DNA of 64,000 nucleotides from Polycyclovorans algicola TG408 (GTDB lineage Bacteria > Pseudomonadota > Gammaproteobacteria > Nevskiales > Nevskiaceae). A program made the translations under genes and the position numbers. Positions 11,500 through 54,981 of this stretch are shown here, in pieces (position 1 is the first letter of the stretch; every line of letters starts with the position of its first letter). The notes under the pieces are model-generated. The model was not told where the DNA came from and made no database searches. It worked only from the letters and a program-made list of their open reading frames with translations. The stretch covers positions 3,094,830-3,158,829 of the forward strand of contig NZ_JOMH01000001.1 of NCBI RefSeq assembly GCF_000711245.1, read 5' to 3'.

Positions 11500-11514
11500 A
11501 AGAGCTTTTATCTC

Positions 11515-12436: not shown

Positions 12437-12499
12437 GGGCAGACCTCGCAACTCAGCAGGCCGACACGCAGGCTGTGCCCGCGCCCGCTCCCCTCCGCC

Positions 12500-12560: not shown

Positions 12561-12569
12561 CGGCAGTCT

Positions 12570-14970: not shown

Positions 14971-14993
14971 CCAAACCCCCAACCGGAGGTCAG

Positions 14994-15386
14994 ATGACCG
15001 ACACACTCGAACGCAACAAACAGACCGTGACCGCCTTCTATGACCTGATGTTCAACCAGTGCCGGCCGGCCGAGGCCATCGACCTTTACGCCGGTGACCA
15101 CTACCGCCAGCACAACCCCCACGTCGCCGACGGCAAAGCGGCCTTCATTGCCTACTTTGAGCGGATGGCGGCTGAATTTCCCGGCAAGCGGGTGCAGTTC
15201 AAGCGGGTCTTCGCTGAGGGGGACTACGTGATCCTGCACTGCCAGCAAACCTGGCCCACCGATGCCCATCGCGAATGGGCGGGCATCGACATTTTTCGCT
15301 TGGATGCAAACGGCAAAATCGTCGAGCACTGGGACGTGCTGCAGGTGGTGCCCGCCGAGTCGGCCAACGACAACGGCATGTTTTAG
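14994..15386 (+). CDS. SnoaL-like / NTF2-fold protein
   Basis: This 130-residue cone-shaped alpha+beta protein resembles the SnoaL-like family (COG4922 type). It has a helical start ([15 protein letters not shown]), a middle [21 protein letters not shown] and a C-terminal sheet ([20 protein letters not shown]). Members include cyclases, hydrolases and proteins without known activity. A strong CGGAGG lies just upstream of the ATG, and the gene starts 23 bp after the LysR stop, so the two are probably cotranscribed. Its stop codon overlaps the stop of the convergent NorF-like gene. Confidence 0.8.
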
Positions 15387-15664
15387 GAGACGGGCGGCAA
15401 CTCCACCCACAACATCGTCACCAGCACGATGGCCAGCAGTGCGATCCACAGCTCGGCCACAAGGCGCATCAGATTGGGCGCGTGGCGCAGCTCCATGAAG
15501 TCGAGCACCACATATCGCACCTTGATCAGGCTGACCAGAATGATGCCGCTGGCCGCCAGGGTTTTGTCATCGCCGGCGCCGCCGCCCAGCGCCCACGACA
15601 GCAGCGTGGCGCCGACCAGCGCCAGCCAGATCACCGTATAACGCGATCGCAGCAGCCAGGCCAT
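15383..15664 (-). CDS. Cytochrome c oxidase subunit IV-like small membrane protein (NorF-like)
   Basis: This 93-residue protein has three hydrophobic helices ([55 protein letters not shown]) and the central motif [16 protein letters not shown] seen in the prokaryotic COX4/NorF family. The ATG at 15664 overlaps the stop of the subunit III-like gene in a TGATG junction, so the two are translated together. No catalytic subunit is nearby, so it is an accessory subunit of an oxidase or NO reductase encoded elsewhere, or has another role. Confidence 0.72.
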
Positions 15665-16293
15665 CAGTTGATCAGAAACAGCAGTGCAAACAACACGATC
15701 CACAACAGATCAACCAGATGCCAAAAACTGGCGCCCGACTCGAAGTTGCGCAGCGCGTTGGCGCTGTAGGGCGCTTCACCGGCGTAGGCGCGCATGGTCA
15801 GCAGCACGCCGGTGCCGATCACCACGTGGATCAGGTGAATGGCGGTGTAGACGTAATACAACATGAAGAAGTCGTTGCTGCTCAGGGTGATGCCCGAGGC
15901 GATCTTCGGCGTGTACTCAACCGCCTTCACCGCCATGAAGCCCAGCGAGCAGGCGATGGCCCAGGTCAGGCAGCCGCGCATGACACCGGGCTTGCCAGCG
16001 CGCGCCGCACGAATCGCCGACGCCACCAGCCAGGAGCTGGTCAGCAAGAGCACGGTATTGAGCAAGCCGAGTTCGGTGCTGAGCAAAGCCTGCGACTCGG
16101 CAAACATCGCCGGGTTGTCGGCGCGATAAAACAGGAACAGCCCGAACAGCAGCGAAAACAGAATGCCGTCACCGGCAATCAGCATCCACACGCCCCCCTC
16201 GCCCGGAATGTGCCCCTGACGTGGGGGATCGGCAGCGGGGTTTGACGCCACGGTGTCAGGCAAAACCGGTCCCGGAGCGCCGCTTCTCGGCAT
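15664..16293 (-). CDS. Heme-copper oxidase subunit III-like protein (NorE-like)
   Basis: This protein of about 209 residues has five predicted helices and the subunit III pattern: GEGGVWMLIAGDGILFSLLFGLF, TVLLLTSSWLVASAIRAA, LGFMAVKAVEYTPKI and the C-terminal ASFWHLVDLLWIVLFALLFL. The short five-helix form matches NorE-type proteins. The ATG at 16293 creates a 38-bp overlap with the upstream gene; a GTG at 16251 is an alternative. NorE and NorF help NO reductase in Paracoccus but also occur without norCB, as here. Confidence 0.8.
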   Translation of the reverse strand: MPRSGAPGPVLPDTVASNPAADPPRQGHIPGEGGVWMLIAGDGILFSLLFGLFLFYRADNPAMFAESQALLSTELGLLNTVLLLTSSWLVASAIRAARAGKPGVMRGCLTWAIACSLGFMAVKAVEYTPKIASGITLSSNDFFMLYYVYTAIHLIHVVIGTGVLLTMRAYAGEAPYSANALRNFESGASFWHLVDLLWIVLFALLFLIN

Positions 16294-16978
16294 TCACCGC
16301 TTTGATGGTGACCGTGCTCATGATCATGATCCAGCCGAAAAACACGATGTAGATGAACCAGAACGAGATCAGTCCGTCGTAGGCAAACGGGCCCGTCTTG
16401 AACAGCTCAATCAATGCGGCCGGCGAAATCAGCACCGCACACCAAAGGTTAAAGAACGCCACCCAGCGCGGGTAAACCGTCGGCACGCTCTGGTCGCGAA
16501 AAATGGCAATGGCAATCGACACCATGAACACTGCAAACGGCGGCCAGCTGAGAATGAAGATGAACCAGACCCAGTCGTTCATGATCTGCATGAAATCGGC
16601 GCCCATCGCCTCGGGGCGAAACGCCATCATCGCCCAGGTGATCGGCATGAGCAGAAAGAACACGTAGCCGCCGCCGGTGTTGGCGACCGACAGATAGGTG
16701 AGTACCGGTGTGCCGCGCTCCATCTTGCGCATCATCATGACGATGGACATGGCCCAGGTCAGATAGAAGGTGTAGCAAATGCACTGGATGACCGTGCCGG
16801 CGCGAATACCGATCTTGCGATCAATAAAAATCTGCTTCAGCGATTCAGCGTCGAGTGCCGGTGAAGGCGGCGGAATAAAGCCCATCAGCCAGCCTTGGGA
16901 CAGCGCCAAGGCCACCACCAGCACCATGCCGGAGTAGGCCATCACCTTGATCAGCGGGCCGTTGTCGGGGGAATTCAT
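16256..16978 (-). CDS. Multi-pass membrane protein of unknown function, linked to the NorE/NorF-like pair
   Basis: This 240-residue protein has about six hydrophobic helices, beginning LIKVMAYSGMVLVVALALSQ and ending FWFIYIVFFGWIMIMSTVTI. No heme-copper histidine pattern or known enzyme motif is visible. The ATG at 16978 removes a long non-membrane upstream extension. Its 3' end overlaps the subunit III-like gene, so the three genes form one operon. I do not recognise the family; a role in assembly or as an extra subunit is a guess from context. Confidence 0.65.
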   Translation of the reverse strand: MNSPDNGPLIKVMAYSGMVLVVALALSQGWLMGFIPPPSPALDAESLKQIFIDRKIGIRAGTVIQCICYTFYLTWAMSIVMMMRKMERGTPVLTYLSVANTGGGYVFFLLMPITWAMMAFRPEAMGADFMQIMNDWVWFIFILSWPPFAVFMVSIAIAIFRDQSVPTVYPRWVAFFNLWCAVLISPAALIELFKTGPFAYDGLISFWFIYIVFFGWIMIMSTVTIKAVNAEKRRSGTGFA

Positions 16979-17141
16979 GTTGTCGCTTCTCCTTGGGAAA
17001 CCGCAGCCCCCCGTATCAGGCCGTTGAGCTGCCGCGACCGGGGAGTCGAATTGATGAACATCGTGCCTTATCATCGGGCGCTCCGCTTCTGCCTTCAAGC
17101 CGGACCCTTCGGCAGCTCGGGAAAGCGGAAGGATGACCCCG

Positions 17142-17753
17142 TCAGGGCTGACGTTCACGTTGCGTGCCGCGCTCGCCTTCACGCACTTCCACCGCGCGGC
17201 CGTTTTCCAGTGTCACCTCGCGCTGTAGCCGACGCGGGCCGAAGTCGTAGCGCCAGCGTTCGCGGTAGACCTCGACCACCTGGCCTTGCGAGAAGGCGAG
17301 TCCATCCAGGGCGCCGTCAGCGCGGCGCGGCGGCGCCAGCAGGTGAACGGCCTCGGCACTTTGCGGCTGGCCGCAGTGGCGCAGTAACCGGTACTTGGTC
17401 ATGCCCTGGCTGATCATCTCGGGCGCGCAATCACCGTCGGGCGGGCGGCTAAAGCCGTAGCCCGCAGCCTCGATGGCCCGCAGTCGACCGTTGCGAAAGC
17501 GCAGCACCCGCAGCAACTGCCGCGACCCGAAGTCGTAGGTCCATTCCTCAGTGACCTGCAGCCTGCCCGGCACCTGTGAAACGCCCGCATCCCAGGGGTC
17601 CATCAGTGCCGGCTCGCCACAGACCGCACGCACCTGCGCCCGGTCATCGCCCAGCGCCACCAGCCTTGACCCACATCGCAAGGTGTCGTCGGCTTCCAAC
17701 GCGGTGGCAACCAGCGACGCCAGCACCCCCAGCGCAATACGCCATTCAGTCAT
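17142..17753 (-). CDS. DUF2845 family exported protein
   Basis: This 203-residue protein has a short signal peptide (RIALGVLASLVATALEA). The mature part contains two copies of a motif: CGSRLVALGDDRAQVRAVCG, later echoed by ISQGMTKYRLLRHCGQPQ, and WTYDFGSRQLLRVLRF echoed by WRYDFGPRRLQREVTL. This duplicated pattern with paired cysteines is characteristic of DUF2845. The function is unknown; it is presumably periplasmic. The start overlaps the DUF1415 stop by 8 bp, so the two are coupled. Confidence 0.8.
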   Translation of the reverse strand: MTEWRIALGVLASLVATALEADDTLRCGSRLVALGDDRAQVRAVCGEPALMDPWDAGVSQVPGRLQVTEEWTYDFGSRQLLRVLRFRNGRLRAIEAAGYGFSRPPDGDCAPEMISQGMTKYRLLRHCGQPQSAEAVHLLAPPRRADGALDGLAFSQGQVVEVYRERWRYDFGPRRLQREVTLENGRAVEVREGERGTQRERQP

Positions 17754-42907: not shown

Positions 42908-43162
42908 GTTTGATTAGCTCTCGGGTCAACAAGGATGTGATGCGCACCGATACGGATCGAGACGCCCAAAAGGTTTGCAGTACGCTACAAGCCTCAAAAA
43001 AACTTTTGCCGCAGATGGGAACCCTTGGGGCACCCGCAATCATCATTGCCCTGCTCTTGAGATGTGATCAGCTCGACTTCATTGAAGGATCAAGATCGGC
43101 TGGGTGAATCATGCGCGAGGGAGCAAGCCGACGACAATGAAGCGCCTCGGAGAAGCGGTCGC
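42908..43162. other. AT-richer gap at the left edge of the restriction locus
   Basis: This 255-bp gap between the HIT gene and the AlbA-domain remnant is less GC-rich than its surroundings (for example CAAAAAAACTTTTGCC near 42997). It contains only short frames without recognisable content. It presumably holds the promoter for the hsd genes; I could not pick one confidently. No attachment site or direct repeat is obvious. Confidence 0.4.
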
Positions 43163-43765
43163 GTGAGCCTCGAAGGACAACTCCTCGATAAAAATTTTTT
43201 GCGATCAGTCACCGGCAAAAGTGCCGACTGGAACGAGCCGGTCAAAGATTGCGTCGCGTTCGCCAACGCGACGGGTGGTCGCCTGCCACTCGGCATCGAA
43301 GATGGTCATGAGCTGCCTTCGGTCGAGACGCTGCAATCTTGGATCAAGCGATGGCTGGAATGGGCTTTGATCCAAAGCGCGGGCCGCTACCCTGACACCA
43401 AGATGGGCGACCTTCATCGGCGGGTAGGGGCAGAAATTCCGCGCTCTCGGGTACGGCGTGCTGTTGAGCAACTGGTCAAAGACGGCGAACTGCTTCAGAA
43501 GGGGGGCGCAATGGCACACGCTACCGCCTCCCCTGATTTGGCTCAAAAGCGGCCATATCCGCCCAGCCTGAACCAAATTAATGCGCCAAACGGGCCGACT
43601 CGAACGCTAACGATTTATTCCGCCAAGAGTTTTGCTTTGGTCCACAAGCGAGACTTGAGCCAAAGTGCCTTCCCGAGAGCGCAATCGAAGAGCTTGCGTC
43701 CTGCCAGCGATAGCAGAACAGCATGGAATCTTGGTGCATTACGCACCAGACAGGGAAAACGGTAA
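43163..43765 (+). pseudogene. Internally deleted AlbA_2 (Schlafen-like) ATP-binding protein gene
   Basis: The frame starts at GTG 43163 after GGAG. Residues 1-50 are a good start of an AlbA_2 domain protein (LLDKNFLRSVTGKSADWNEP, CVAFANATGGRLPLGIEDGH). Such proteins are normally about 450-550 residues and often sit inside type I restriction loci. Here the domain breaks off and joins a winged-helix-like C-terminal piece (GDLHRRVGAEIPRSRVRRAV, EQLVKDGELLQKGG), so some 300 codons appear to be missing. The remaining 80 or so codons to the stop do not look like protein. hsdR starts 3 bp later. Confidence 0.6.
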
Positions 43766-43768: not shown

Positions 43769-46567
43769 ATGACCAAATCCGAGGCTCAAACCCGATCAGA
43801 GCTGGTTGACCAGCACCTCGCCCAGTCTGGCTGGAACATCAAGGACCCCACGCAGGTCATCGAAGAATTCGACATCTTGACCGTCTTGCCAGAGGGGGCG
43901 GCCGAACCGCGTACGCGCTACGAAGGCCACCAGTTCAGCGACTATGTCCTGCTGGGCAAAGACCGCAAGCCACTGGCGGTAATCGAAGCCAAAAAAACAA
44001 GCCGAGATGCTGCCATTGGTCGTGAGCAAGCGAAGCAGTATTGCCACAACATCCAGAAGCAATTGGGCGGTGAGCTGCCATTCTGCTTTTACACAAACGG
44101 TCACGAAACCTATTTCTGGGATCTGGGAAATGCCCCACCGCGCAAGGTGGTCGGTTTTCCCACCCGTGACGACCTAGAACGCTTCGCCTACATCCGCCGC
44201 AATCGCAAGCCACTGACGCAAGAGTTCATCAACACCTCGATTGCAGGTCGCGACTACCAAATCCGTGCGATTCGCTCAGTGCTCGAAGGCATTGAGCAGA
44301 AAAAGCGTGACTTCCTGCTGGTGATGGCCACCGGCACCGGCAAAACCCGCACCTGCATTGCCATGGTCGATGCCTTGATGCGCGCTGGCCACGCTGAGAA
44401 GGTGCTGTTTCTGGTCGATCGCATCGCACTTCGCGAGCAGGCACTGGCGGCCTTCAAGGAACACATGCCCAACGAGCCGCGCTGGCCCAATATGGGCGAA
44501 AAACTGATCGCCAAAGACCGCCGCATTTACGTTGCCACCTATCCCACGATGCTCAACATCATCCGGGACAAGGCGCAGCACTTGTCTCCGCATTTCTTCG
44601 ATTTCATCGTCGTCGATGAGAGCCATCGCTCCATCTACAACACCTTCGGCGAAGTGCTCGACTACTTCAAAACCATCACCCTGGGTCTGACGGCCACGCC
44701 GACCGACATCATCGATCACAACACCTTCCAGCTTTTCCATTGCGAAGACGGCCTGCCGACCTTCGCCTATACCTTCGAAGAGGCCGTGAACAACGTGCCG
44801 CCCTACCTCTGCAACTTCCAGGTCATGAAGATTCAGACCAAGTTCCAGATGGAAGGCATCAGCAAACGCACGATTTCGCTGGAAGACCAAAAAAAGCTGA
44901 TCCTGCAAGGCAAGGAGGTTGACGAAATCAACTTCGAAGGCTCGCAGCTCGAAAAGCAGGTGATCAACAAGGGCACCAACACCCTGATCGTCCGCGAGTT
45001 CATGGAGGAATCCATCAAGGACGCCAACGGCGTGCTGCCGGGCAAAACCATCTTCTTCTGCGCCACCATGGCCCACGCCCGGCGCATCGAAGAAATCTTC
45101 GACAAGCTTTATCCGCAGTACAAGGGCGAGCTGGCCAAGGTGCTGGTGTCGGACGACCCGCGCGTCTACGGCAAGGGCGGTCTGCTCGATCAGTTCACCA
45201 ACAACGACATGCCACGCATTGCCATCAGCGTGGACATGCTCGACACCGGCATCGACGTGCGCGAAATCGTCAACCTCGTGTTCGCCAAACCGGTCTATTC
45301 CTACACCAAGTTCTGGCAGATGGTCGGACGCGGCACACGCTTGCTGGAAACGAGCAAGCCCAAACCCTGGTGCCTTGAGAAAGACGTGTTCCTGATCCTC
45401 GACTGCTGGGACAACTTTGAATACTTCAAGCTCAATCCCAAGGGCAAGGAACTCAAGCCACAGTTGCCACTGCCCGTGCGTTTGGTAGGTCTGCGGCTCG
45501 ACAAGATCGAGAAGGCCAACGACAGCGGCCATGCCGACATTGCTGGTCGTGAAATCGCCAAGCTCCGCCTGCAAATTACTGCGCTGCCCAAGGAATCGGT
45601 GGTGATCAAAGAAGCCGCCGCTGTGCTGGCGCGGCTGGAAGATGAAAATTTCTGGATCAGCCTCAGCCACGACCGGTTGGAGTTCCTGCGCGCTGAAATC
45701 AAGCCGCTGTTCCGTACCGTCTCCGAGGCCGACTTCAAGGCCATGCGTTTTGAGCGCGATCTGCTGGAATACTCGCTGGCCGTGCTGAATGAAGACAAAG
45801 CACAAGCCGACGCCATCAAGGCAGGCATCGTCGAACAGATCAGTGAACTGCCGCTCTCGGTCAGCTTCGTGAAGCAGGAAGAAGCCCTGATCCGCGCCGC
45901 GCAAACCAGCCGCTACTGGGTCAAGGCGGATGAAGATGCCTTCGATGAATTGGTCGCCAAGCTCGGTCCACTGATGAAATTCCGCGAGCAAAGCACCGGC
46001 CAGGAGCAAACCCACCTCGACCTGCTCGATGAGTTGCACAAGAAAGAACGGGTGGAATTCGGCCCGCAGCACGAGGCGGTGAGCATCAGTCGTTACCGTC
46101 AAATGGTCGAGGCGCTGATTGCCGACCTCACCGAGCACAATCCGGTACTGCAGAAGATCAAGAACGGCGAGGCAGTAAGTGCAGATGACGCCAACCGACT
46201 AGCCGAACTGCTGCATGAAGAACATCCACATATCACCGAACATCTGCTGCGGCAGGTCTACAAGAACCGCAAGGCGCGCTTCATTCAGTTCATTCGCCAC
46301 ATCATGGGCATTGAGTTACTTCAGAGCTTTCCGGATGAAGTCAGCGCCGCCTTCGACCAATTCATCCGTGCCCACACAACGCTCAGCAGCCGACAGATGG
46401 ATTTCCTCAACCTGCTGAAGAACTTCATCATCGAGCGCGAAATGGTGGAGAAGAGAGACCTGATCAACGCCCCCTTTACGGTCATCCACCCGCAGGGCAT
46501 CCGTGGCGTGTTCAGCACGGCCGAAATCAACGACATCCTTCAGCTGACCGAACGGTTGGCTGCCTAA
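43769..46567 (+). CDS. hsdR: Type I restriction enzyme, endonuclease/translocase subunit R
   Basis: The 932-residue motor and nuclease subunit cuts DNA remote from the unmethylated site. Residues 55-80 hold the PD-(D/E)xK nuclease (D58 in FSDYVLL, E73-A-K75 in AVIEAKKTSR). The SF2 motor follows: Walker A MATGTGKT (186-193), DESH (283-286), TATP (308-311) and motif VI MVGRGTRLL. The C-terminal part resembles the EcoEI-type R subunit that binds the methylase. All catalytic residues are present. ATG at 43769; 15 bp separate it from hsdM. Confidence 0.95.
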   Translation: MTKSEAQTRSELVDQHLAQSGWNIKDPTQVIEEFDILTVLPEGAAEPRTRYEGHQFSDYVLLGKDRKPLAVIEAKKTSRDAAIGREQAKQYCHNIQKQLGGELPFCFYTNGHETYFWDLGNAPPRKVVGFPTRDDLERFAYIRRNRKPLTQEFINTSIAGRDYQIRAIRSVLEGIEQKKRDFLLVMATGTGKTRTCIAMVDALMRAGHAEKVLFLVDRIALREQALAAFKEHMPNEPRWPNMGEKLIAKDRRIYVATYPTMLNIIRDKAQHLSPHFFDFIVVDESHRSIYNTFGEVLDYFKTITLGLTATPTDIIDHNTFQLFHCEDGLPTFAYTFEEAVNNVPPYLCNFQVMKIQTKFQMEGISKRTISLEDQKKLILQGKEVDEINFEGSQLEKQVINKGTNTLIVREFMEESIKDANGVLPGKTIFFCATMAHARRIEEIFDKLYPQYKGELAKVLVSDDPRVYGKGGLLDQFTNNDMPRIAISVDMLDTGIDVREIVNLVFAKPVYSYTKFWQMVGRGTRLLETSKPKPWCLEKDVFLILDCWDNFEYFKLNPKGKELKPQLPLPVRLVGLRLDKIEKANDSGHADIAGREIAKLRLQITALPKESVVIKEAAAVLARLEDENFWISLSHDRLEFLRAEIKPLFRTVSEADFKAMRFERDLLEYSLAVLNEDKAQADAIKAGIVEQISELPLSVSFVKQEEALIRAAQTSRYWVKADEDAFDELVAKLGPLMKFREQSTGQEQTHLDLLDELHKKERVEFGPQHEAVSISRYRQMVEALIADLTEHNPVLQKIKNGEAVSADDANRLAELLHEEHPHITEHLLRQVYKNRKARFIQFIRHIMGIELLQSFPDEVSAAFDQFIRAHTTLSSRQMDFLNLLKNFIIEREMVEKRDLINAPFTVIHPQGIRGVFSTAEINDILQLTERLAA

Positions 46568-46582
46568 ACAACAAGGCACCCC

Positions 46583-48247
46583 ATGCTGCAAAACAACCCC
46601 GAACTCAAAAGCAAGATCGATCAGCTCTGGAACAAATTCTGGAGTGGTGGCATCAGCAATCCGCTCACCGCCATTGAGCAGATCACCTACCTGCTATTCA
46701 TGAAGCGGCTAGACGAGCTCGATCAAAAGCGTCAAGCAGATGCCGAATGGACGAGTGATATTTATACGTCCAAATTCGAGGGCCAATGGATTCCACCGGA
46801 GGAGCGCAACTGGCCGGTGGCCGAGCAGAGGCCGATCAACAAGCGCACGCTGCGCTGGAGCGAATTCAAGCGCCTGCAGGCCGAAGAGATGCTGCAGCAC
46901 GTGCAGGGCAAGGTATTCCCTTTCCTCAAGGACCTGAACGGATCGGCGTCCAACTTCACCCACCACATGAAGAACGCGGTGTTCATCATCCCCAAGCCAC
47001 AATTGCTGGTGGAGGCGGTCAAGACCATCGACGACATTTTCGAAGTGATGGAGCGCGACTCGCGCGAAAACGGTCAGGCTTTCCAGGACATCCAGGGCGA
47101 TGTTTACGAAATGCTGCTATCCGAGATCGCCTCTGCCGGCAAAAACGGCCAGTTCCGTACCCCGCGCCATATAATCAAACTGATGGCGGATTTGGTGCGC
47201 CCACAGCTCGGCCACAAGATTGCCGATCCAGCCTGTGGCACGGGTGGCTTCCTGCTTGGCGCCTATCAGTATGTCGTCACCCAGCTCGCCATCAATGCGG
47301 GCACACAGAATCTCGCACCAGACGAAGACGGTTTTTTACGGACTTCCGTTGCTGCCGCATTTGATGCAAAGCGGCAAGCCATCCTGCAAGAAACCCTTTA
47401 CGGCTATGACATTGACAGCACCATGGTTCGTCTGGGGCTGATGAACCTGATGATGCACGGCATCGACGAGCCGCACATCGACTACAAAGACACCCTCAGC
47501 AAAAGTTACAACCAAGAGGCTGAGTACGACATCGTGATGGCCAACCCGCCCTTCACCGGCAGCATCGACAAGGGCGACATCAACGAAAACCTGCAACTCG
47601 GCACTACAAAAACCGAACTGCTGTTTGTCGAAACCATCTACGGCCTGCTGAAGAAAGGCGGCACCGCCTGCGTGATCGTGCCGCAGGGCGTGCTATTCGG
47701 CTCCGGCGGCGCTTTCAAGATCCTGCGCCAGTTGCTGGTGGAGCGTTGCGACCTCAAGGCCGTCATCACCATGCCCAGCGGCGTGTTTAGGCCTTATGCC
47801 GGGGTCAGCACCGCTATTTTGCTGTTCACCAAAGTCTGGGGGCCGAAGGACAACGTCACCCAGCCCGCCACCGAACACGTCTGGTTCTACGAAATGACCG
47901 CTGACGGCTACTCGCTGGACGACAAACGCAGCAAGCAGGAGGGCAATGGCGACCTGCAGGACATCATCGCCAAATACCACGCCCGCAATCCGGCCACCGA
48001 CATCGACCGCACCGCCAAGTGCTTCATGGTGCCGCGTGCCGAGATCGCGGATGAGAAAAACAACTACGACCTCTCTCTTTCCCGCTACAAAACCGATGTG
48101 TTCGAAGACGTGCACTACGACGCGCCGGGCGTGATTCTGGAGCGACTGATTCAGGCCGAGGTGGGGGATGTGGACGAGGCAGAACTTGCCAAAGTGCAAG
48201 GCGGCATCGTGCGCGAGTTGCTGGAGTTGAAGGGGATGGTGGGATGA
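46583..48247 (+). CDS. hsdM: Type I restriction enzyme, methyltransferase subunit M
   Basis: The N6-adenine methyltransferase subunit has 554 residues. After the HsdM N-terminal domain (SKIDQLWNKFWSGGISNPLT, ITYLLFMKRLDELD) comes the SAM site, motif I ADPACGTGGFLLGA (residues 214-227), and the catalytic NPPF at 321-324 in DIVMANPPFTGSID. GQFRTPRHIIKLMADLVRP is the typical segment before motif I. A short AAGG precedes the ATG. Its 3' end overlaps hsdS by 4 bp. Confidence 0.96.
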   Translation: MLQNNPELKSKIDQLWNKFWSGGISNPLTAIEQITYLLFMKRLDELDQKRQADAEWTSDIYTSKFEGQWIPPEERNWPVAEQRPINKRTLRWSEFKRLQAEEMLQHVQGKVFPFLKDLNGSASNFTHHMKNAVFIIPKPQLLVEAVKTIDDIFEVMERDSRENGQAFQDIQGDVYEMLLSEIASAGKNGQFRTPRHIIKLMADLVRPQLGHKIADPACGTGGFLLGAYQYVVTQLAINAGTQNLAPDEDGFLRTSVAAAFDAKRQAILQETLYGYDIDSTMVRLGLMNLMMHGIDEPHIDYKDTLSKSYNQEAEYDIVMANPPFTGSIDKGDINENLQLGTTKTELLFVETIYGLLKKGGTACVIVPQGVLFGSGGAFKILRQLLVERCDLKAVITMPSGVFRPYAGVSTAILLFTKVWGPKDNVTQPATEHVWFYEMTADGYSLDDKRSKQEGNGDLQDIIAKYHARNPATDIDRTAKCFMVPRAEIADEKNNYDLSLSRYKTDVFEDVHYDAPGVILERLIQAEVGDVDEAELAKVQGGIVRELLELKGMVG

Positions 48248-49797
48248 GGCTCCGCAAACTCGATGAATTTATGGTTAAACGGGGAGGCTCTGTCGACCCC
48301 TCCAAATTTAAAAATGAGACGTTTCAGCTTTTAAGCATTCCCGCATTCGATCAAGGGAGTCCCGATGTTGTCGAGGGCGAAAAGATTGGGTCCTCCAAGA
48401 AGATCGTTGAGCCTCGTGATGTCTTGCTGTCAAAAATAGTCCCTCATATCCGGCGCTGCTGGATTGTTCCCGAGCGCATTGACAAACGGCAGATCGCTTC
48501 CGGCGAATGGATCCAATTTCGGGGCGATGATTTATTTCCAGAATACCTACGGCTGTACTTGATATCAAACCGTTTTCATAGACAATTCATGAACACTGTG
48601 AAGGGAGTGGGAGGATCACTTCTTAGAGCAAGCCCGGCACAGGTTGCTGAAATCGAAATCCCTGTCCCCGAAGAGTTCGACGACCAAATCCGCATTGCCC
48701 ATCTGCTCGGCAAAGTGGAAGGGCTGATCGCCCAGCGCAAACAACACCTGCAACAACTCGACGACCTGCTCAAGAGCGTATTTCTGGACATGTTTGGCGA
48801 TCCGGTTCGGAATGAGAGGGGGTGGGATAAAGCACCGCTTGAAAAGCTTGGCTCCGTCAATCGCGGAGTATCCAAACACCGCCCAAGAAACGATCCGAAA
48901 TTATTGGGCGGCAAGTATCCACTGATTCAAACGGGCGAAGTGTCGAATGCGGGCACCTATATCACGACATACACGCAAACTTATTCGGAAATAGGTTTTT
49001 CTCAGAGCAAGCAGTGGCCAGTTGGCACACTGTGCATCACGATTGCTGCAAACATTGCCCAAACTGGCATTTTGATGTTTGAAGCCTGCTTCCCGGATAG
49101 TGTGGTTGGATTTATCGCAGACGCAAATGAGGCCAATCCTCTTTATGTTCACGGCCTGTTCTGGTTCTTCCAGTCCATCTTGGAAAAGAATGCGCCAGCA
49201 GCAGCGCAGAAGAACATCAATCTTGAGATTCTGCGCAACCTGGAGGTTCCGAAACCTCCGATTCTTCTACAAAACCAGTTCGCCACCGTCGTTGAAAAGA
49301 TCGAAGGCATCAAATTCCGCCACCAGCAAAGCCTCACCGACCTCGAAGCCCTCTACGGCGTGCTGAGCCAGAAGGCCTTCAAGGGCGAGCTGGATCTGTC
49401 GCGCGTGCCGATGCCGGGCATACAACCAGAAGATGAGCAAACCGTGGCAGCAGAACCCTTGCACGCACCCGCCGAACAAGGCTTGGCCATCCACTTGCCT
49501 GACACCGACAACTTACTCGATGCGCTTGTGAGCGCTGAGGTGCGCGAGGGTTTGATCGCGCAGTGGCTGGTGGCCTATCGCGGCCAACTCAGCGACACGC
49601 CGTTTTCAGTGCAGCACTTCACGGCGGCGGCGCAAACGCGGCTGGCGGAGCTGTACCCGGACAACGACTTCGCACTGGGTGCCAACGACTACGAGCACAT
49701 CAAGGCCTGGGTGTTCGATGCGCTGGCCGCTGGCACGCTGGCGCAGGCGTTTGATGACGCGGGCAACCGCATTGAACTCAAGGCCGTGCAGGCATGA
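48244..49797 (+). CDS. hsdS: Type I restriction enzyme, specificity subunit S, with C-terminal extension
   Basis: The 517-residue protein sets the recognition sequence. It has TRD1 (about 1-145), conserved helix 1 (QIRIAHLLGKVEGLIAQRKQ, 148-167, continuing to about 187), TRD2 (about 195-340) and conserved helix 2 (340-385, ending QKAFKGELDLS). Beyond the normal end there is a further tail of about 127 residues (391-517), acidic and mostly helical, with AEVREGLIAQWLVAYRGQLS and ANDYEHIKAWVFDALAAG. The TRD-coding DNA, especially 48250-49250, is visibly AT-richer than the helices, a sign of TRD exchange. It is coupled by 4-bp overlaps at both ends (hsdM and the AAA ATPase). Confidence 0.93.
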   Translation: MRLRKLDEFMVKRGGSVDPSKFKNETFQLLSIPAFDQGSPDVVEGEKIGSSKKIVEPRDVLLSKIVPHIRRCWIVPERIDKRQIASGEWIQFRGDDLFPEYLRLYLISNRFHRQFMNTVKGVGGSLLRASPAQVAEIEIPVPEEFDDQIRIAHLLGKVEGLIAQRKQHLQQLDDLLKSVFLDMFGDPVRNERGWDKAPLEKLGSVNRGVSKHRPRNDPKLLGGKYPLIQTGEVSNAGTYITTYTQTYSEIGFSQSKQWPVGTLCITIAANIAQTGILMFEACFPDSVVGFIADANEANPLYVHGLFWFFQSILEKNAPAAAQKNINLEILRNLEVPKPPILLQNQFATVVEKIEGIKFRHQQSLTDLEALYGVLSQKAFKGELDLSRVPMPGIQPEDEQTVAAEPLHAPAEQGLAIHLPDTDNLLDALVSAEVREGLIAQWLVAYRGQLSDTPFSVQHFTAAAQTRLAELYPDNDFALGANDYEHIKAWVFDALAAGTLAQAFDDAGNRIELKAVQA

Positions 49798-51662
49798 AGC
49801 TGCTGCGCCTCAAGATCACCGACCCGGCAGGCTTTCGCAGCCTGCCCGGTGGTTTTGAGCATTACTTTCGCACCGAATGGAGCTTGCAGGACGAACTGGC
49901 CCAGCCCGAAGGCTTTGCGCCTTTCGTGTGCGCCGGCCCCAATGGCAGCGGCAAGTCCAACCTGCTAGAAGCGCTGGCTGCGATCTTCTTTCAGCTGGAA
50001 ATCCTGCGAGTGCGCCGCAGTTTTCTGCCCGAGATGTTGCAAAACACCGATCAGGACTTGTCGCCTGCGGCGTTTGAACTGGCTTATCTGATTCGGGTAC
50101 CACCCGAATACGTTCGCCCCGGTGGCCAGGTATGGGCGAAGGTGTACGTCTGGAAAATACCAGGTGAATCGGTGTGCATTTTGTGGGAGAACCAGAGCGA
50201 CTTCGACACGGATGTTTCTGAGGCTTTCAAGGGTGATCACGCCAACATCCTGCTGCCCCAGTATGTGCTGGGCTACTCGTCTGGCGAGAACGAAATCCTC
50301 AGCCTGCCCTTCCTCAAGCTGCGTTTTGTGCAGTTCGACGAATACTGGAATGCGCTGACCCGGCAATTGAGTTATCCCGGCCACCCGGAGACGCGACTGG
50401 CCTATCTGGACAGCGGTTTCAGCCAAGCCATTCTGCTGTGCAACCTGCTGTTTCAGGACGAGGCCACATTGCAGCCCTTCCGCGAGGATGTGGGCATCGA
50501 GGCTTTGCGGGAATTCCGCATCATCCTGCGCCGCCGAATTCCGATCGACACAATACAACTGGAAGCCTTCGACCTAGCTGATGAAGATCAGAAGCGCGAG
50601 CGACGAAATCGAATACAGGCGGAAGCTCGAACACGCGGACTCTCAGAGTCTGATATCAGCCAGTCAGTTGACGATTGGGTTCGCCGCGAGATCATCAAAG
50701 ACAACCCCGCGCTCTCGGAAACTGATGAACCGGTAAGTACGCGCTACCGCCTGAACTTGCTGCAGCTGCTGGAGGCTGACGAGAAGTCGTCGCTGGTGGT
50801 GAGCGCCCTCAAGCGTTGTGCCACGCTGAGTTACATCGACGATGCCAGCGATGCGCTGGTGCTCGACTACTGGGTGAATGACGCGACCCGGCAGGCATTC
50901 CGAGAGAACTTCGATGGCTCGGCGCTGGCGCTTTTCCAGGCGTTTCAGGTCCTGCTGACGCTCAACCTGCATGCCGTCAGCGACGCGCTGAAGTCCGATC
51001 TCTACACCTCTACCAGCCACTACGTCGGCGAGACGGTGCCAACCCTGGCATCCGACCAGCGCATCACGCGCTTCAAGTTCGTGCGCTTCACCAAGCAGGG
51101 TGTGGCCGAGCCGATGATGCTCAAGGAATTGTCGGATGGCGAGCACCAGTTGCTGCACAGCCTCGGCCTGTGCCTGCTATTTCGGGAGACCAACAGCGTG
51201 TTCCTCCTCGACGAGCCGGAAACCCACTTCAACCCAGACTGGCGCGCCAACTTCATCACGCGACTGCGCCAATGCCTGCCGCGCAAGGATAATGTCGCGC
51301 AGGAAATGCTGATCACCACCCACACGCCTTTCCTGATCTCCGATAGCAAGCCGGACAAGGTGCTGGTGTTCTCCAAGAACAACACCAACGGCACTGTCAG
51401 CATCAGCCACCCGGACTACAACACCCTGGGCGCGTCGATCAACCAGATCACCATGAAAACCTTCGGTAAGCGCGAAACCATCGGTGGCCATTCGCAGGCG
51501 CTACTGGACGATCTGCGTCGGCGCTTTGAAGTGGGTGCGGAAGACAAGGAAACCTTGATCACGGAAATCCATCAGCAGCTCGGTGATTCGGTGGAGAAGC
51601 TGCTGCTGATCAAGGCCATTCTCGACAGCGGTCAGCCGGGAAACAATGGGGCGCAAGACTGA
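49794..51662 (+). CDS. Restriction-associated AAA/ABC-type ATPase (PtuA/OLD-like)
   Basis: The 622-residue SMC/OLD-type ATPase has Walker A AGPNGSGKSNLLEAL (47-61), a long middle region (about 100-440), an ABC-like signature ELSDGEHQLL (445-454), Walker B NSVFLLDEPETHF (467-479) and an H-loop TTHTPF (508-513). No TOPRIM nuclease domain follows, so it is more like PtuA of Septu or retron ATPases than full OLD. The start overlaps hsdS (ATGA) and the stop overlaps the HNH gene (TGATG). It most likely senses or loads DNA for the HNH nuclease. The functional call is inference. Confidence 0.85.
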   Translation: MKLLRLKITDPAGFRSLPGGFEHYFRTEWSLQDELAQPEGFAPFVCAGPNGSGKSNLLEALAAIFFQLEILRVRRSFLPEMLQNTDQDLSPAAFELAYLIRVPPEYVRPGGQVWAKVYVWKIPGESVCILWENQSDFDTDVSEAFKGDHANILLPQYVLGYSSGENEILSLPFLKLRFVQFDEYWNALTRQLSYPGHPETRLAYLDSGFSQAILLCNLLFQDEATLQPFREDVGIEALREFRIILRRRIPIDTIQLEAFDLADEDQKRERRNRIQAEARTRGLSESDISQSVDDWVRREIIKDNPALSETDEPVSTRYRLNLLQLLEADEKSSLVVSALKRCATLSYIDDASDALVLDYWVNDATRQAFRENFDGSALALFQAFQVLLTLNLHAVSDALKSDLYTSTSHYVGETVPTLASDQRITRFKFVRFTKQGVAEPMMLKELSDGEHQLLHSLGLCLLFRETNSVFLLDEPETHFNPDWRANFITRLRQCLPRKDNVAQEMLITTHTPFLISDSKPDKVLVFSKNNTNGTVSISHPDYNTLGASINQITMKTFGKRETIGGHSQALLDDLRRRFEVGAEDKETLITEIHQQLGDSVEKLLLIKAILDSGQPGNNGAQD

Positions 51663-52795
51663 TGCTGTTTCCGTACATCTACGTGCCACACAAGATGGAG
51701 AAGATGCAGGCGTTCATCGACTTCATTTTTCATGAGGTTTGGTGCAAGGCTCCGGCAAGCGGCGCCTTTGGCCTGCACCTGTTTGACGCCAACACTGAGC
51801 TGCGCGAAGTGATGGAAGCGTTTTATTACTCCGACACGCAGGGTGCCGATTTCTTCCATGGCCATGTAGAGCGAATATACGGCCTGTTTTCGGCGCTTGA
51901 CGCCGCGCAGATCAACCAGTTTCAGCGGTGGTATCAGGGCAATAACGATTTGGAGAAGGTGTGCGCCAATGATCCGGCTACACATCTCGTCCGGTACACC
52001 GACATCGCGGCTGCCCATCAAGACCTTGGCGAGCAACTGGCGGTTTTCTTCAAGGGGCTATACGCACAATCGTTTTTGGATCTTGCTGTACTACGAGACA
52101 AGATCGGTGACATCGCTAACCACTATCAAACCTTTGTATCGACCAACGCGGCTGGAAAATGCCCGTTCTGCGGCATCGGCGACATCAAGGGCACGCACCA
52201 CACCAAACGCGAGGCCTACGACCATTACTTGCCCAAGGCGCTGTACCCATTCAACTCGATGAATTTTCGCAATCTTGCACCCGCCTGCCACGAATGCAAC
52301 AGCACCTATAAGCTCAGCAAGGATCCCGCGCACAACCTGGCTGGGCGGCGCAAAGCTTTCAATCCCTATGCCGCAGCCAGTCATACGATTCAAATCCAGA
52401 TCACTCTAAAACACGCAGATGTAGATAAATTGCTGCCTGCTGACATCACGATGCACTTCGGCCCTGCGGCGGTGGCTGAAGAACTTGATACTTGGAAGGA
52501 CGTGTACGGTATTGAAGAGCGCTACAAAGCCAAACTCTGCGGGGAGAACGACGGGAAGTATTGGCTGACACAGGTGCTGGACGAATGCCAAGCGCACGAC
52601 AAGCGACCTGCCGACATCATAGCTATGCGCGCCGCCCAAGCACAGAGTAAACCGTACGCTGACTGCAATTTCCTCCGAAAACCCTTTCTTGACGCCTTCC
52701 AGCCAATCATCCCGCTTTTAAATTTTTCCACGGCAGCCAAATTGCATATCGGCAACCAGCTGAAGCCCGTCGAGACCAAGGTATCGACACCATGA
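51662..52795 (+). CDS. HNH endonuclease coupled to the AAA ATPase (PtuB-like)
   Basis: The 377-residue protein has a mainly helical N-terminal part of about 160 residues. An HNH module with zinc ligands follows: C167-P-F-C170, then YDHYLPK (D187-H188), FRNLAPACHECNST (N204, C209, C212, N213). The C-terminal 150 residues are unassigned. An ATPase followed by an HNH nuclease is the Septu arrangement, but this protein is larger than a typical PtuB, and here both are downstream of hsdS. Start and stop overlap their neighbours (TGATG, then ATGA with sbcB). Confidence 0.82.
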   Translation: MLFPYIYVPHKMEKMQAFIDFIFHEVWCKAPASGAFGLHLFDANTELREVMEAFYYSDTQGADFFHGHVERIYGLFSALDAAQINQFQRWYQGNNDLEKVCANDPATHLVRYTDIAAAHQDLGEQLAVFFKGLYAQSFLDLAVLRDKIGDIANHYQTFVSTNAAGKCPFCGIGDIKGTHHTKREAYDHYLPKALYPFNSMNFRNLAPACHECNSTYKLSKDPAHNLAGRRKAFNPYAAASHTIQIQITLKHADVDKLLPADITMHFGPAAVAEELDTWKDVYGIEERYKAKLCGENDGKYWLTQVLDECQAHDKRPADIIAMRAAQAQSKPYADCNFLRKPFLDAFQPIIPLLNFSTAAKLHIGNQLKPVETKVSTP

Positions 52796-54234
52796 GCACC
52801 TCCAAAGATCGCTTCCTCTGGCACGACTACGAAACCTTCGGCGCCGACGCTGCGCGCGATCGCCCCTCGCAGTTCGCAGGTGTCTACACCGACGCCGACC
52901 TGAACCCGGTGGGCGAGCCGCTGATGTTCTACTGCCAGCCGACGCTGGACGTGCTGCCGCATCCCGACGCCGCGCTGATCACCGGCATCAGCCCGCAGAT
53001 TGCCGAGCGTGACGGCCTGCCCGAGTACCAGTTTGCCGAGCGCATCCACCAGGCCTTCAGCGGCCCCAATGTGTGCGGCGTAGGCTACAACTCGATTCGG
53101 TTTGACGATGAATTCACCCGCCACCTGTTCTGGCGCAATTTCATAGATCCGTATCGCCGTGAGTGGTTTGGCGGCAACAGCCGCTGGGACCTGATTGACG
53201 TGGTCCGCCTGTGGCACGCGCTGCGGCCCGAGGGGCTGGAATGGCCGGTGAACGACAAGGGCGCCACCAGTTTCAAGCTGGAACACCTGAGCGCCGCCAA
53301 TGGCCTGGTGCACGAGCGCGCCCACGATGCGCTGTCCGACGTGTACGCGACCCTGGCGCTGGCGCAGAAGCTGAAGGCCGCCCAGCCGCGATTGTTCGAG
53401 CACGCCCTGAAGCTGCGTGACAAGCGCATCGCCGCCAATCTGCTGAAGCTGGGCGACCCGCAGCCGGTGCTGCATGTGTCGTCACGCATTCCGGCGACGC
53501 TGGGCTGCATCACCGCCGTCATCCCGCTGGCGGTGCACCCGGTGAATAAAAACTGCGTCATCTGCTTTGACCTGCGCCAAGACACCGCCGCACTGCTCAG
53601 CCTTGACGTGGACGAGCTGCAAGACCGGCTGTTTACCCCCGCCGCCGAACTGCCCGAAGGCATCGACCGGCTGGCGCTGAAAGGCATCCACCTCAACAAG
53701 TCACCGATGCTGGCGCCCATGGGCACGCTCAGCGCCGAGGCGGCTGAGCGCTGGCAGTTCGACCTGCCCCAGATTCGCGAGCACCATGCGACCCTGCTGG
53801 GGGTGGGCGACGCGCTGCGCGACAAGGTGCAGGCCATCTTCGTGCAACCGGATTTTGATGAGCAGGACGCCGAATGTTCGCTCTACGCCGGCTTTGTCAG
53901 CGATGCCGACCGTGCGCGCTGCGAGCAGGTGCGCAAGGCCGGGCCCGGTGCGGTGGAATCCTTCGATGGCAGCTTTGAAGACGCACGCCTCAACATGCTG
54001 CTGTTCCGCTGGCGCGCGCGCCACGCCCCGCACACGCTCAACGCCGCCGAGCAGGACGAATGGCAACAGTTCGTGCAGCGCAAGCTGCAGGTGGATACCG
54101 GGCTGGCATCAATGACCCTGGAGGCCTATCAGGCCCTCATCGACCAGCGCATGCGCGAGATCAACGATCCCGACAAGCTGCGCCTGCTGGTGGACCTGAA
54201 GAGTTGGCCGATGGATGCGGGGTTGCCGCTGTAG
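52792..54234 (+). CDS. sbcB: Exodeoxyribonuclease I
   Basis: The 3'-5' single-strand DNA exonuclease acts in recombination and mismatch repair. It has 480 residues, full family length. DEDDh residues: D12 and E14 in LWHDYETFG, the second aspartate region in CGVGYNSIRFDDEF, and HDALSDVYATLALA near residue 180. The ExoI C-terminal domains follow (YAGFVSDADRARCEQV, LLFRWRARH). The ATG overlaps the HNH stop by 4 bp (ATGA), tying this repair gene to the defence operon. Confidence 0.94.
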   Translation: MSTSKDRFLWHDYETFGADAARDRPSQFAGVYTDADLNPVGEPLMFYCQPTLDVLPHPDAALITGISPQIAERDGLPEYQFAERIHQAFSGPNVCGVGYNSIRFDDEFTRHLFWRNFIDPYRREWFGGNSRWDLIDVVRLWHALRPEGLEWPVNDKGATSFKLEHLSAANGLVHERAHDALSDVYATLALAQKLKAAQPRLFEHALKLRDKRIAANLLKLGDPQPVLHVSSRIPATLGCITAVIPLAVHPVNKNCVICFDLRQDTAALLSLDVDELQDRLFTPAAELPEGIDRLALKGIHLNKSPMLAPMGTLSAEAAERWQFDLPQIREHHATLLGVGDALRDKVQAIFVQPDFDEQDAECSLYAGFVSDADRARCEQVRKAGPGAVESFDGSFEDARLNMLLFRWRARHAPHTLNAAEQDEWQQFVQRKLQVDTGLASMTLEAYQALIDQRMREINDPDKLRLLVDLKSWPMDAGLPL

Positions 54235-54299
54235 AACTGGCGCAGCAGCCCTGCCGGGATTGATGTTCGCGGGCCTGCGGCTGGGCTCTTTGAATGTTG

Positions 54300-54356
54300 T
54301 CATTGGACAAACCAATTCGATTGTTTTGTATCGCGTATCGATATAAAGTAAGCCCA
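54300..54356 (+). promoter_or_regulatory. higBA promoter/operator region
   Basis: This AT-rich stretch directly before higB contains TTGGAC (54304-54309), 17 bp, then TTGTAT (54327-54332), and also TATAAA near 54342. Two TATCG direct repeats sit between them. HigA-type antitoxins usually bind their own promoter, so these repeats may be the operator. Confidence 0.4.
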
Positions 54357-54638
54357 ATGGCCATCCAGTCGTTCAGATCCCGCGAAACTGAAGCGCTGCA
54401 TGGGCGCCACCGGGTTGCACGCTTCGTCAACATTGAATCCGTAGCGCGGCGCAAGCTGGATCAGTTGGATGCCGCCGGCACCTTGCGCGACATGGCGGCC
54501 CCACCGGGGAACCGACTTGAGGCGCTACGTGGCAACCGAGCCGGTGAGCACAGCATCCGAATCAACGATCAGTGGCGGGTGTGCTTCATCTGGACCGACC
54601 AGGGCCCGAAAGACGTTGAAATCGTCGACTACCACTGA
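54357..54638 (+). CDS. higB: HigB/RelE-family toxin
   Basis: The 93-residue product is probably a ribosome-dependent mRNA interferase. Its RelE-fold sequence reads IQSFRSRETEALHGRHRVAR at the start, LEALRGNRAGEHSIRINDQW in the middle and RVCFIWTDQGPKDVEIVDYH at the end, typical of HigB/GraT toxins, with the basic residues and the C-terminal aspartate-tyrosine-histidine. ATG at 54357; the open frame upstream is promoter DNA. The antitoxin gene follows by 22 bp, the toxin-first order typical of hig loci. Confidence 0.9.
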   Translation: MAIQSFRSRETEALHGRHRVARFVNIESVARRKLDQLDAAGTLRDMAAPPGNRLEALRGNRAGEHSIRINDQWRVCFIWTDQGPKDVEIVDYH

Positions 54639-54660
54639 TGACCAACAACGGAGATCGATC

Positions 54661-54981
54661 ATGAGTAGAAAGCTCAAACCCATCCACCCCGGCGAGCAGT
54701 TGCGAGAGGAATTCATGATTCCGCTGGGCCTGTCCAGCAACGCCCTGGCCCGTGCCCTGGGGGTGACGCCTGCGCGCATCAACGAAATCGCCAGAGGGCG
54801 GCGCGGCATCAGCGCCGATACCGCGCTGCGGCTGGCGCGTTACTTCGGCACCTCCCATCAGTTCTGGATCAACTTGCAAGCCAACTATGAGGTGAAGTGC
54901 GCGGAGGACGCCGCCGGGAGTGTTATCGCCAAGATCAAGCCATTGGCGGATGCCGATCGCGAGTTGGGCCACGCGGCTTAG
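54661..54981 (+). CDS. higA: HigA family antitoxin
   Basis: The 106-residue XRE-type antitoxin begins MSRKLKPIHPGEQLREEFM. The helix-turn-helix LGLSSNALARALGVTPARIN and the HigA block GISADTALRLARYFGTSHQF-W follow. It should bind and neutralise HigB and repress the locus. A GGAGAT Shine-Dalgarno lies just upstream of the ATG. The pair ends the accessory block before metG. Confidence 0.93.
   Translation: MSRKLKPIHPGEQLREEFMIPLGLSSNALARALGVTPARINEIARGRRGISADTALRLARYFGTSHQFWINLQANYEVKCAEDAAGSVIAKIKPLADADRELGHAA

What the first reader, a model, noticed from the sequence alone, without database searches (positions are those of the whole stretch)
43769..54234. Type I restriction operon fused with a Septu-like ATPase/HNH pair
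hsdR, hsdM, hsdS, an SMC/OLD-type ATPase, an HNH nuclease and sbcB are in one direction. Every junction from hsdM onward overlaps by 1-4 bp, so hsdS, ATPase and HNH are made in a coupled way. The ATPase (Walker A 48-55, signature 445-452, Walker B 467-475, no TOPRIM) and the HNH protein (C167/C170, D187-H188, C209/C212) resemble PtuA and PtuB but are larger. This suggests a composite defence unit: methylation-guided restriction plus an ATPase-gated nuclease, perhaps as a second line when restriction is evaded. ATPase genes associated with restriction loci are known; the working of this combination is, as far as I know, not described.
Basis: partly seen in the sequence, partly recalled or inferred. 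Interest (0 to 1): 0.75.

Follow-up and report, generated by a model that had tools for sequence, protein, structure and literature searches.

The report
Restriction system carrying a PtuAB-like nuclease
A bacterial DNA-restriction operon carries a second, two-protein nuclease related to the Septu defence proteins, and its target-recognition protein has an extra domain so far seen only in this arrangement, which suggests that the second nuclease is wired to the first as a backup against viruses.

Summary
In detail: hsdR-hsdM-hsdS-ATPase-HNH are intact, in one direction, overlapping by 1-4 bp from hsdM on. sbcB is only the chromosomal neighbour: it is this genome's one sbcB and is beside the pair in no other locus examined. 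The other five genes are a real unit. Starting from the ATPase alone, 79 loci from about a dozen phyla had hsdS directly upstream in 77 and HNH directly downstream in 78; the three misses are contig ends. The ATPase is NCBIfam TIGR04435, already named 'restriction system-associated', so that link is known. New here: (1) HsdS ends in a winged-helix-like domain found in 2 of 398 Pseudomonadota genomes, the two with the full-length ATPase, though 203 of 398 have an HsdS domain; (2) the HNH protein has a PtuB-like predicted fold; (3) HNH diverges together with the last ~60 residues of the ATPase, the HsdS domain with the ATPase body; (4) two plasmid forms lack hsdR; (5) a species of the same genus has true PtuA/PtuB in a different type I operon at the same sbcB site. 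Most likely mechanism, inferred and untested: Hsd keeps a PtuAB-like toxin silent and releases it when restriction is blocked, as EcoprrI does with PrrC.

The parts
43769..46567 (+). hsdR, type I restriction subunit (932 aa)
   Evidence: Pfam HSDR_N, ResIII, EcoEI_R_C; PADLOC REase_I 538 bits; E73, K75 and Walker K192 in 63 of 63 full-length homologues
46583..48247 (+). hsdM, type I methyltransferase subunit (554 aa)
   Evidence: Pfam HsdM_N, N6_Mtase; NPPF 321-324 in 68 of 68 full-length homologues
48244..49797 (+). hsdS, type I specificity subunit (517 aa)
   Evidence: Pfam Methylase_S 194-355; PADLOC Specificity_I PDLC03117 411 bits; 4-bp overlap with hsdM
49492..49794 (+). C-terminal domain of HsdS (residues 417-517), winged-helix-like, so far found only beside this ATPase; proposed docking domain
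   Evidence: Alignment A3; 2 of 398 Pseudomonadota genomes, both directly before the ATPase; AF2 pLDDT 91.7; Z 7.4 to LmrR
49794..51662 (+). PtuA-like ABC/SMC-type ATPase, TIGR04435 restrict_AAA_1 (622 aa)
   Evidence: 811 bits, cut-off 300; profile hits to solved PtuA
51456..51629 (+). C-terminal tail of the ATPase (residues 555-612), which diverges together with the HNH protein; proposed HNH-binding part
   Evidence: Partial correlation 0.51 with HNH divergence, permutation p 0.002, 54 loci
51662..52795 (+). PtuB-like HNH nuclease (377 aa) with extra helical parts
   Evidence: AF2 pLDDT 92.0; best solved matches PtuB of retron-Eco7/Ec78, Z 8.1-8.6; conserved C..C-DH-N-C..CN

Best explanation
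[quoted passage not shown] Hsd proteins methylate the host and cut unmethylated DNA (established for the families, not tested here). The PtuA-like ATPase docks on the winged-helix domain at the end of HsdS and carries the HNH nuclease on its C-terminal tail (inferred). The intact Hsd complex keeps the ATPase-HNH pair silent; when a phage inhibitor or failed restriction disturbs Hsd, the pair is switched on and the HNH nuclease attacks tRNA or DNA, stopping the infected cell (inferred). This is the logic of PrrC on EcoprrI, and of retron-Eco7, where RT and msDNA hold PtuAB. Shown here: the conserved unit, the homologies, the private HsdS domain, the linked divergence of ATPase tail and HNH. Inferred: docking, silencing, trigger, substrate.
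For: Fixed gene order in 79 loci: hsdS adjacent in 77, HNH in 78, hsdR found in 65, hsdM in 72; every miss is at a contig end. Wherever the HsdS end domain was found it stood before this ATPase: 2 of 398 genomes, 1 plasmid record of 72,556, against 203 of 398 genomes with an HsdS domain. The HsdS domain tracks the ATPase body (partial r 0.35 given hsdM and hsdR, p 0.002) and not HsdM (0.05, p 0.28); the ATPase tail tracks HNH (0.51, p 0.002) and not the HsdS domain (0.07, p 0.16). Active-site motifs are kept. PtuAB relationship by sequence and fold. PtuA-type ATPases also sit directly after hsdS in other type I operons. Passages read: PtuAB of retron-Eco7 is a toxin that depletes tRNA-Tyr and is held by RT and msDNA (PMC11555353); Septu EcB88 needs its Walker and H-N-H residues and acts like abortive infection (PMC13096335); PrrC is silenced by EcoprrI (PMC2610378).
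Against: No direct evidence of docking, silencing, toxicity or substrate. Two plasmid forms have hsdM-hsdS-ATPase-HNH and no recognisable hsdR, which fits a guard of HsdR badly. The linked divergence could partly reflect plain DNA adjacency; the HsdS target region also tracks the ATPase body weakly (0.18, p 0.002) and the end domain tracks HsdR weakly (0.19, p 0.014). The domain model has only moderate matches (best Z 7.4, no Foldseek E <= 0.001). The domain scores E > 0.001 in 6 of 77 HsdS, all from Bacteroidota, and is not detected at that level in diverged loci that do have the ATPase and HNH (G110, G259, L020, L021, L022).
Confidence: 0.45

Rival explanations
1. Second restriction effector: HsdM-HsdS recognise unmethylated sites and hand them to the ATPase-HNH pair, which cuts or degrades that DNA in addition to, or instead of, HsdR. 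The HsdS end domain recruits the ATPase to the site.
For: Two hsdR-less forms keep HsdM, HsdS, ATPase and HNH: the 41.6-kb Hymenobacter plasmid pHsw2 (no hsdR match, no unassigned ORF of 400 aa or more) and a 109-kb Priestia plasmid (no hsdR match in the 49.9 kb scanned and none annotated in the rest). Target regions differ widely among near relatives while the pair stays (L027/L084: target regions 31%, ATPase 95%, HNH 94% identical). PtuAB of one Septu is reported to target nicked DNA (PMC11555353 discussion passage).
Against: hsdR was found in all 65 of 79 loci whose contig reaches far enough upstream, so the pair does not normally replace HsdR. PtuAB of retron-Eco7 and Septu EcB88 act on tRNA-Tyr. 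HsdR could act in trans in the hsdR-less strains; their chromosomes were not seen.
Confidence: 0.3
2. Independent co-resident: a Septu-like system that only shares transcription with the restriction genes and has its own trigger.
For: Related ATPase-HNH pairs do live without restriction genes beside them: L106, L155, L157 and L160.
Against: In this ATPase family hsdS was directly upstream in 81 of 83 loci and the two misses are contig ends. The private HsdS domain and its divergence together with the ATPase are unexpected for a mere neighbour.
Confidence: 0.15
3. The HsdS end domain only serves methyltransferase or restriction assembly or regulation (for example DNA or operator binding), and the pair is a passive passenger.
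For: Winged helices often bind DNA (general knowledge); the best structural matches are LmrR/PadR-type regulators.
Against: The domain was not found in other HsdS (2 of 398 genomes against 203 with Methylase_S) and follows the ATPase rather than HsdM.
Confidence: 0.1

Closest known systems
TIGR04435 restrict_AAA_1 (NCBIfam 'restriction system-associated AAA family ATPase')
   Same: The ATPase is a full-length member (811 bits, cut-off 300).
   Different: The model names only the ATPase; the HNH partner has no NCBIfam or Pfam match above a cut-off, and the HsdS end domain is named by no matched model; the PADLOC specificity model PDLC03117 spans it without naming it.
Septu (PtuA/PtuB) and retron I-A (Ec78/Eco7) effectors
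   Same: ABC ATPase plus HNH nuclease in overlapping genes, PtuA-like C-terminal half, PtuB-like fold.
   Different: Both proteins score far below the curated cut-offs (PtuA equivalog 44 bits against 500); the HNH protein is larger (377 aa against about 210 in the solved PtuB chains); wired to a type I operon instead of standing alone or with a reverse transcriptase.
PrrC with EcoprrI (type IC RM-linked anticodon nuclease)
   Same: ABC ATPase-nuclease encoded inside a type I RM locus; the proposed guard logic (passages).
   Different: Two proteins with an HNH nuclease, not one protein with the PrrC anticodon-nuclease triad.
PARIS (AriA/AriB)
   Same: PtuA-related ATPase plus separate nuclease that senses anti-restriction (passage).
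   Different: Nuclease is HNH, not the AriB Toprim nuclease (abstract start of PMC12409363); tied to RM genes; AriA scores lower than PtuA (67 against 176 bits).
MADS (methylation-associated defence)
   Same: HsdM-like, HsdS-like and ATPase genes together (mad2, mad5, mad3 models match weakly or partly).
   Different: MAD2 113.6 bits against cut-off 720 and MAD3 27.4 against 420.

Membership tests
Type I restriction-modification | HsdR, HsdM and HsdS with their catalytic and recognition domains | tested here: met
   Pfam and PADLOC matches, conserved motifs
Type I restriction-modification | N6-adenine methylation and restriction activity | not testable with these tools
   needs methylome and plating data
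TIGR04435 restrict_AAA_1 | Score over the curated cut-off (300 bits) | tested here: met
   811.3 bits, profile 1-566 of 568
Septu / PtuAB | ATPase over the PtuA equivalog cut-off NF041760 (500 bits) | tested here: not met
   44.2 bits, C-terminal part only
Septu / PtuAB | HNH protein over the TIGR02646 cut-off (52.15 bits) | tested here: not met
   19.8 bits; PtuB NF041761 not listed at E <= 0.001
Septu / PtuAB | PtuB fold | tested here: met
   VIA-align Z 8.6, 184 residues aligned to a 210-residue chain, rmsd 5.4, 9% identity, next unrelated row Z 3.0; Foldseek alone is not significant, E 1.3
Septu / PtuAB | Protection that needs Walker and HNH residues; tRNA or DNA cleavage | not testable with these tools
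   the residues are conserved
PrrC | ATPase and anticodon-nuclease (HEPN-type, recalled) domain in one protein | tested here: not met
   no such match in Pfam or NCBIfam, nor in the best 25 PADLOC rows
OLD-type ATPase | TOPRIM domain on the ATPase | tested here: not met
   Pfam gives AAA_21 and weak AAA_15, SMC_N, ABC_tran only
MADS | MAD2 and MAD3 over cut-off | tested here: not met
   113.6 against 720; 27.4 against 420 bits
PARIS | AriB Toprim nuclease partner | tested here: not met
   the partner is an HNH protein with a PtuB-like fold

The most novel reading that the evidence does not exclude
HsdS has acquired a dedicated winged-helix docking domain that turns the type I complex into the sensor and silencer of a PtuAB-like effector. 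The effector end (ATPase tail plus HNH) is an exchangeable cartridge, as the target-recognition regions are at the other end, so one chassis varies both what it recognises and what it attacks. In hsdR-less forms the effector is the only nuclease left.
Probability: 0.35. Interest if true: 0.8.

Novelty: new variant of a known kind. Interest (0 to 1): 0.6.

Why it matters
PrrC with EcoprrI is the well-studied case of a restriction enzyme that holds a toxin in check, but it is one protein family. If this reading is right, a second, widespread and differently built nuclease is wired to type I restriction, with an identifiable docking domain. That makes the 2012 proposal that immunity and suicide modules are coupled (PMC3506569, passages read) testable by deleting one domain. 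It would also show PtuAB as a portable effector, used by retrons, alone, and by restriction systems.

Tried and rejected
sbcB as a component: rejected. It is single-copy here (the second hit has 23 bits, under the cut-off). In the ORF search of 101 loci it was found only in L001 and L003, both this genome, and in none of L015-L101. A match was found in 16 of 25 relatives; in the three fetched without restriction genes it lies next to metG (L142) or within 2.7 kb of it (L143, L144).

Mobile-element end repeats around the operon: none stood out among those shown (20 of at least 60 direct families, 25 of 77 inverted pairs). The one sbcB-start pattern searched has a single match in the window, though the sister species has a second copy of the start.

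Accessory genes as part of the system: ORFs found between or beside hsdR, hsdM and hsdS recur only in small sets (largest clusters 10 and 9 of 83 loci, partly outside the operon), so I do not count them as core.

Foldseek on the HNH model gave nothing significant (best row PtuB, E 1.3); the PtuB-fold claim rests on VIA-align, which re-examines Foldseek's own candidates. For the HsdS domain no Foldseek match reached E 0.001.

My hsdR profile has limits: it missed the HsdR of L141, which Pfam recognises (HSDR_N). So for the hsdR-less plasmids I also checked annotation and, for pHsw2, ORF size. The two Priestia genes annotated 'restriction endonuclease' show Mrr_cat or no Pfam match, and the gene before hsdM is a Schlafen-type helicase. 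PLSDB gene tables are incomplete.

DNA adjacency as the cause of the tail-HNH linkage: not excluded. HNH segments far from the junction correlate with the tail as well (residues 241-300: 0.49, 301-350: 0.41, first 60: 0.45), as exchange of the whole gene would also give.

Rows dropped before counts: one search counts only full-length ORFs (77 ATPases, 80 HNH, 63 HsdR, 68 HsdM, 76 HsdS, window included) out of 83 loci plus the window. Searches use the 54 (window included) with all five full-length proteins, L020-L022 excluded. A3 holds the window and 46 of the 70 HsdS ends listed; Bacteroidota rows are left out. A1, A2 and A4 hold 66, 57 and 61 rows out of 80, 77 and 80. The domain profile was iterated on the same loci it was then scored on. 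The tree uses 26 hand-picked ATPases, has long branches, and supports the RM group itself weakly (14).

The viral-contig scan gave 7 loci; 3 (L147-L149) were checked and have all five genes with the HsdS domain (E 3e-36, 8e-9, 4e-6); the 4 weaker ones were not examined.
Full report
What is there. hsdR, hsdM and hsdS look intact. The 622-aa ATPase is a full-length member of NCBIfam TIGR04435, 'restriction system-associated AAA family ATPase' (811 bits, cut-off 300). The 377-aa HNH protein has no NCBIfam or Pfam match above a cut-off; PADLOC gives weak matches to PDC-M01B, PDC-M62B and PtuB.

Is it a unit? A genome scan with the ATPase alone kept the best 80 of 130 relatives, 79 distinct loci. 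By my reading of the record titles they come from about a dozen phyla (Pseudomonadota, Bacteroidota, cyanobacteria, Chlorobi, Desulfobacterota types, Nitrospirota, Planctomycetota, Verrucomicrobiota, Lentisphaerota, Bacillota and others). hsdS lies directly upstream in 77 of 79 and HNH directly downstream in 78 of 79; the misses have 409, 0 and 59 bases of contig on that side. hsdR was found in 65 of 79 and hsdM in 72 of 79; the misses all run into a contig end. With four plasmid loci added, 44 of 81 hsdS/ATPase junctions overlap by 4 bp and 67 of 82 ATPase/HNH junctions by 1 bp. The three viral contigs examined, of seven found, show the same five genes. In an even sample of 398 Pseudomonadota genomes the ATPase is over its cut-off in 2, and in 4 at E <= 1e-40. 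The HNH profile matches 13 of 398; the four strong matches are in those same four genomes, the other nine (E 8e-11 and weaker) cover mostly the HNH motif. So the association is neither chance nor local, but the system is rare in that sample.

The HsdS domain. The HsdS proteins of these loci share a tail after the second target-recognition region. A profile of it, iterated on the same loci, matches 71 of 77 adjacent HsdS at E <= 0.001 and five more weakly; the six that fall short are all Bacteroidota. In the 398 genomes it occurs in 2, both directly before the ATPase, while 203 of the 398 have at least one HsdS domain match. In 72,556 plasmid records it matches one, again this system. The converse fails: the diverged loci G110, G259 and L020-L022 have ATPase and HNH but no domain match at E <= 0.001. 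The predicted structure (pLDDT 91.7) is a winged helix; best matches are LmrR/PadR-type regulators at Z 7.4, 78 residues, rmsd 2.9, a level that may mean only a common arrangement.

The HNH protein. The model (61 sequences, pLDDT 92.0, pTM 0.87) matches PtuB of retron-Eco7/Ec78 over PtuB's whole length (9vh1_F Z 8.6, 184 residues, rmsd 5.4, 9% identity); the next different structure has Z 3.0. Foldseek alone is not significant. The ATPase profile's best solved relatives are AAA ATPases and PtuA of retron Ec78 (E about 1e-12), PtuA 8ee4 (2.7e-8) and AriA (1e-6), through the C-terminal part.

How the parts vary. Over 54 loci with all five full proteins, the ATPase tail (555-612) follows HNH divergence beyond the ATPase body (partial r 0.51, permutation p 0.002) but not the HsdS domain (0.07, p 0.16). 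The HsdS domain follows the ATPase body beyond HsdM and HsdR (0.35, p 0.002), not HsdM (0.05, p 0.28), and HsdR a little (0.19, p 0.014); the HsdS target region follows the ATPase body less (0.18, p 0.002). Among 134 locus pairs with ATPase bodies at least 70% identical, tail and HNH identity correlate at 0.73, body and HNH at 0.08. For example, L027 and L084 share 94% of HNH with each other but 37% with the window; their ATPases are 81-82% identical to the window's overall, yet only 44% over residues 551-600 and 18% after that. I read this as a bridge: HsdS end domain to ATPase body, ATPase tail to HNH. Neighbouring genes exchanged in one tract would give part of the same signal, and pairs of related loci are not independent; the permutations deal with that only partly.

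Variants without hsdR. The whole Hymenobacter plasmid pHsw2 (41,562 bases) has hsdM, hsdS, ATPase and HNH, no hsdR match, and no unassigned ORF of 400 aa or more. The Priestia plasmid has the same four genes; 49,901 of its 109,268 bases were scanned without an hsdR match, and the annotation of the rest names none. My hsdR profile is not all-seeing (it missed the HsdR of L141), and the chromosomes were not seen. The Herpetosiphon plasmid has a second methyltransferase gene before a diverged pair.

A second capture. In a species of the same genus (G002, locus L141) the same place before sbcB holds another type I operon: hsdM, an ATP-binding protein, hsdS, a 456-aa ATPase, a 209-aa HNH protein, a Fic-like protein, hsdR, then sbcB (some names are my reading of the translations). 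There the pair is PtuA (394 bits) and PtuB (242 bits) by PADLOC. I opened seven plasmid contexts of relatives of that PtuA, out of 25 records found: in two (Ketogulonicigenium L154, Enterobacter L158) the ATPase and the next gene lie directly after hsdS and before hsdR; the partner is annotated as an HNH protein in L154 and as hypothetical in L158. The other five have no annotated restriction gene directly beside the ATPase. Placing all restriction-linked ATPases in one clade is rejected (p-AU 8.7e-5, 26 rows, long branches). So PtuAB-type pairs have probably been joined to type I operons more than once. G002 keeps a 23-codon copy of the sbcB start upstream of its cassette, so this is an insertion site and sbcB is the neighbour.

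Mechanism. Passages read show that PtuAB of retron-Eco7 is a toxin depleting tRNA-Tyr, neutralised by RT and msDNA, while another Septu is reported to act on nicked DNA (PMC11555353). Septu EcB88 cleaves tRNA-Tyr (abstract start of PMC13096335) and needs both active sites (passages). PrrC is silenced by its type I enzyme and set free by the T4 Stp peptide (PMC2610378; PMC12707154). Putting these together, the simplest account is that Hsd takes the place of RT-msDNA as holder of a PtuAB-like effector. The hsdR-less forms keep the second-effector reading alive. None of this was tested.

Novelty. The ATPase's link to restriction is in NCBIfam. In the open-access library I found no description of this ATPase with its HNH partner, or of the HsdS domain: 'TIGR04435' and 'restriction system-associated AAA' give no paper, and among the papers listed by the combined searches (4, 0, 14, 15 of 236, 7, 2, 18) none says so in its title or the shown start of its abstract. 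Six passages of the PADLOC paper mention other Septu variants or none (PMC8565338). Most subscription papers and all bioRxiv preprints are outside that library.

Noticed in passing
L141 (G002, same genus), 3963-17499: A different type I operon with PtuA/PtuB inserted before the same sbcB gene; a 23-codon copy of the sbcB start remains upstream.
   Followed up: partly
window 52792-52795 and L141 16039-16042: In both species the last gene of a different restriction cassette overlaps the sbcB start by 4 bp.
   Followed up: no
window 43064-43765: ORF upstream of hsdR with no Pfam, NCBIfam or PADLOC match; it looks to me like a decayed AlbA_2-type gene (recalled, no call supports it).
   Followed up: partly
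window 54294-54981: HigB/HigA toxin-antitoxin pair between sbcB and metG.
   Followed up: no
L105 3224-5095: Herpetosiphon plasmid: a second N6 methyltransferase gene lies between hsdS and a diverged ATPase-HNH pair.
   Followed up: no
L146 14895-16778: Priestia plasmid: a Schlafen-type helicase gene lies just before the hsdR-less hsdM-hsdS-ATPase-HNH set.
   Followed up: no
L068 and L086 hsdS: HsdS C-terminal region lengthened to about 340-350 residues, with the usual end at the tip.
   Followed up: no
window 52718-52792 (HNH residues about 353-377): The last about 25 residues of the HNH protein are poorly predicted and do not match L024, L030 or L027; they may come from the junction with sbcB.
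   Followed up: no
L104 6818-7675: Sinorhizobium HNH relative (103.6 bits) with no match to the ATPase profile in the 14.6-kb stretch; the stretch is unannotated.
   Followed up: no
L120 13562-17764: Diverged copy in G110 with the ATPase in two reading frames and an hsdM-like gene after the HNH gene.
   Followed up: no
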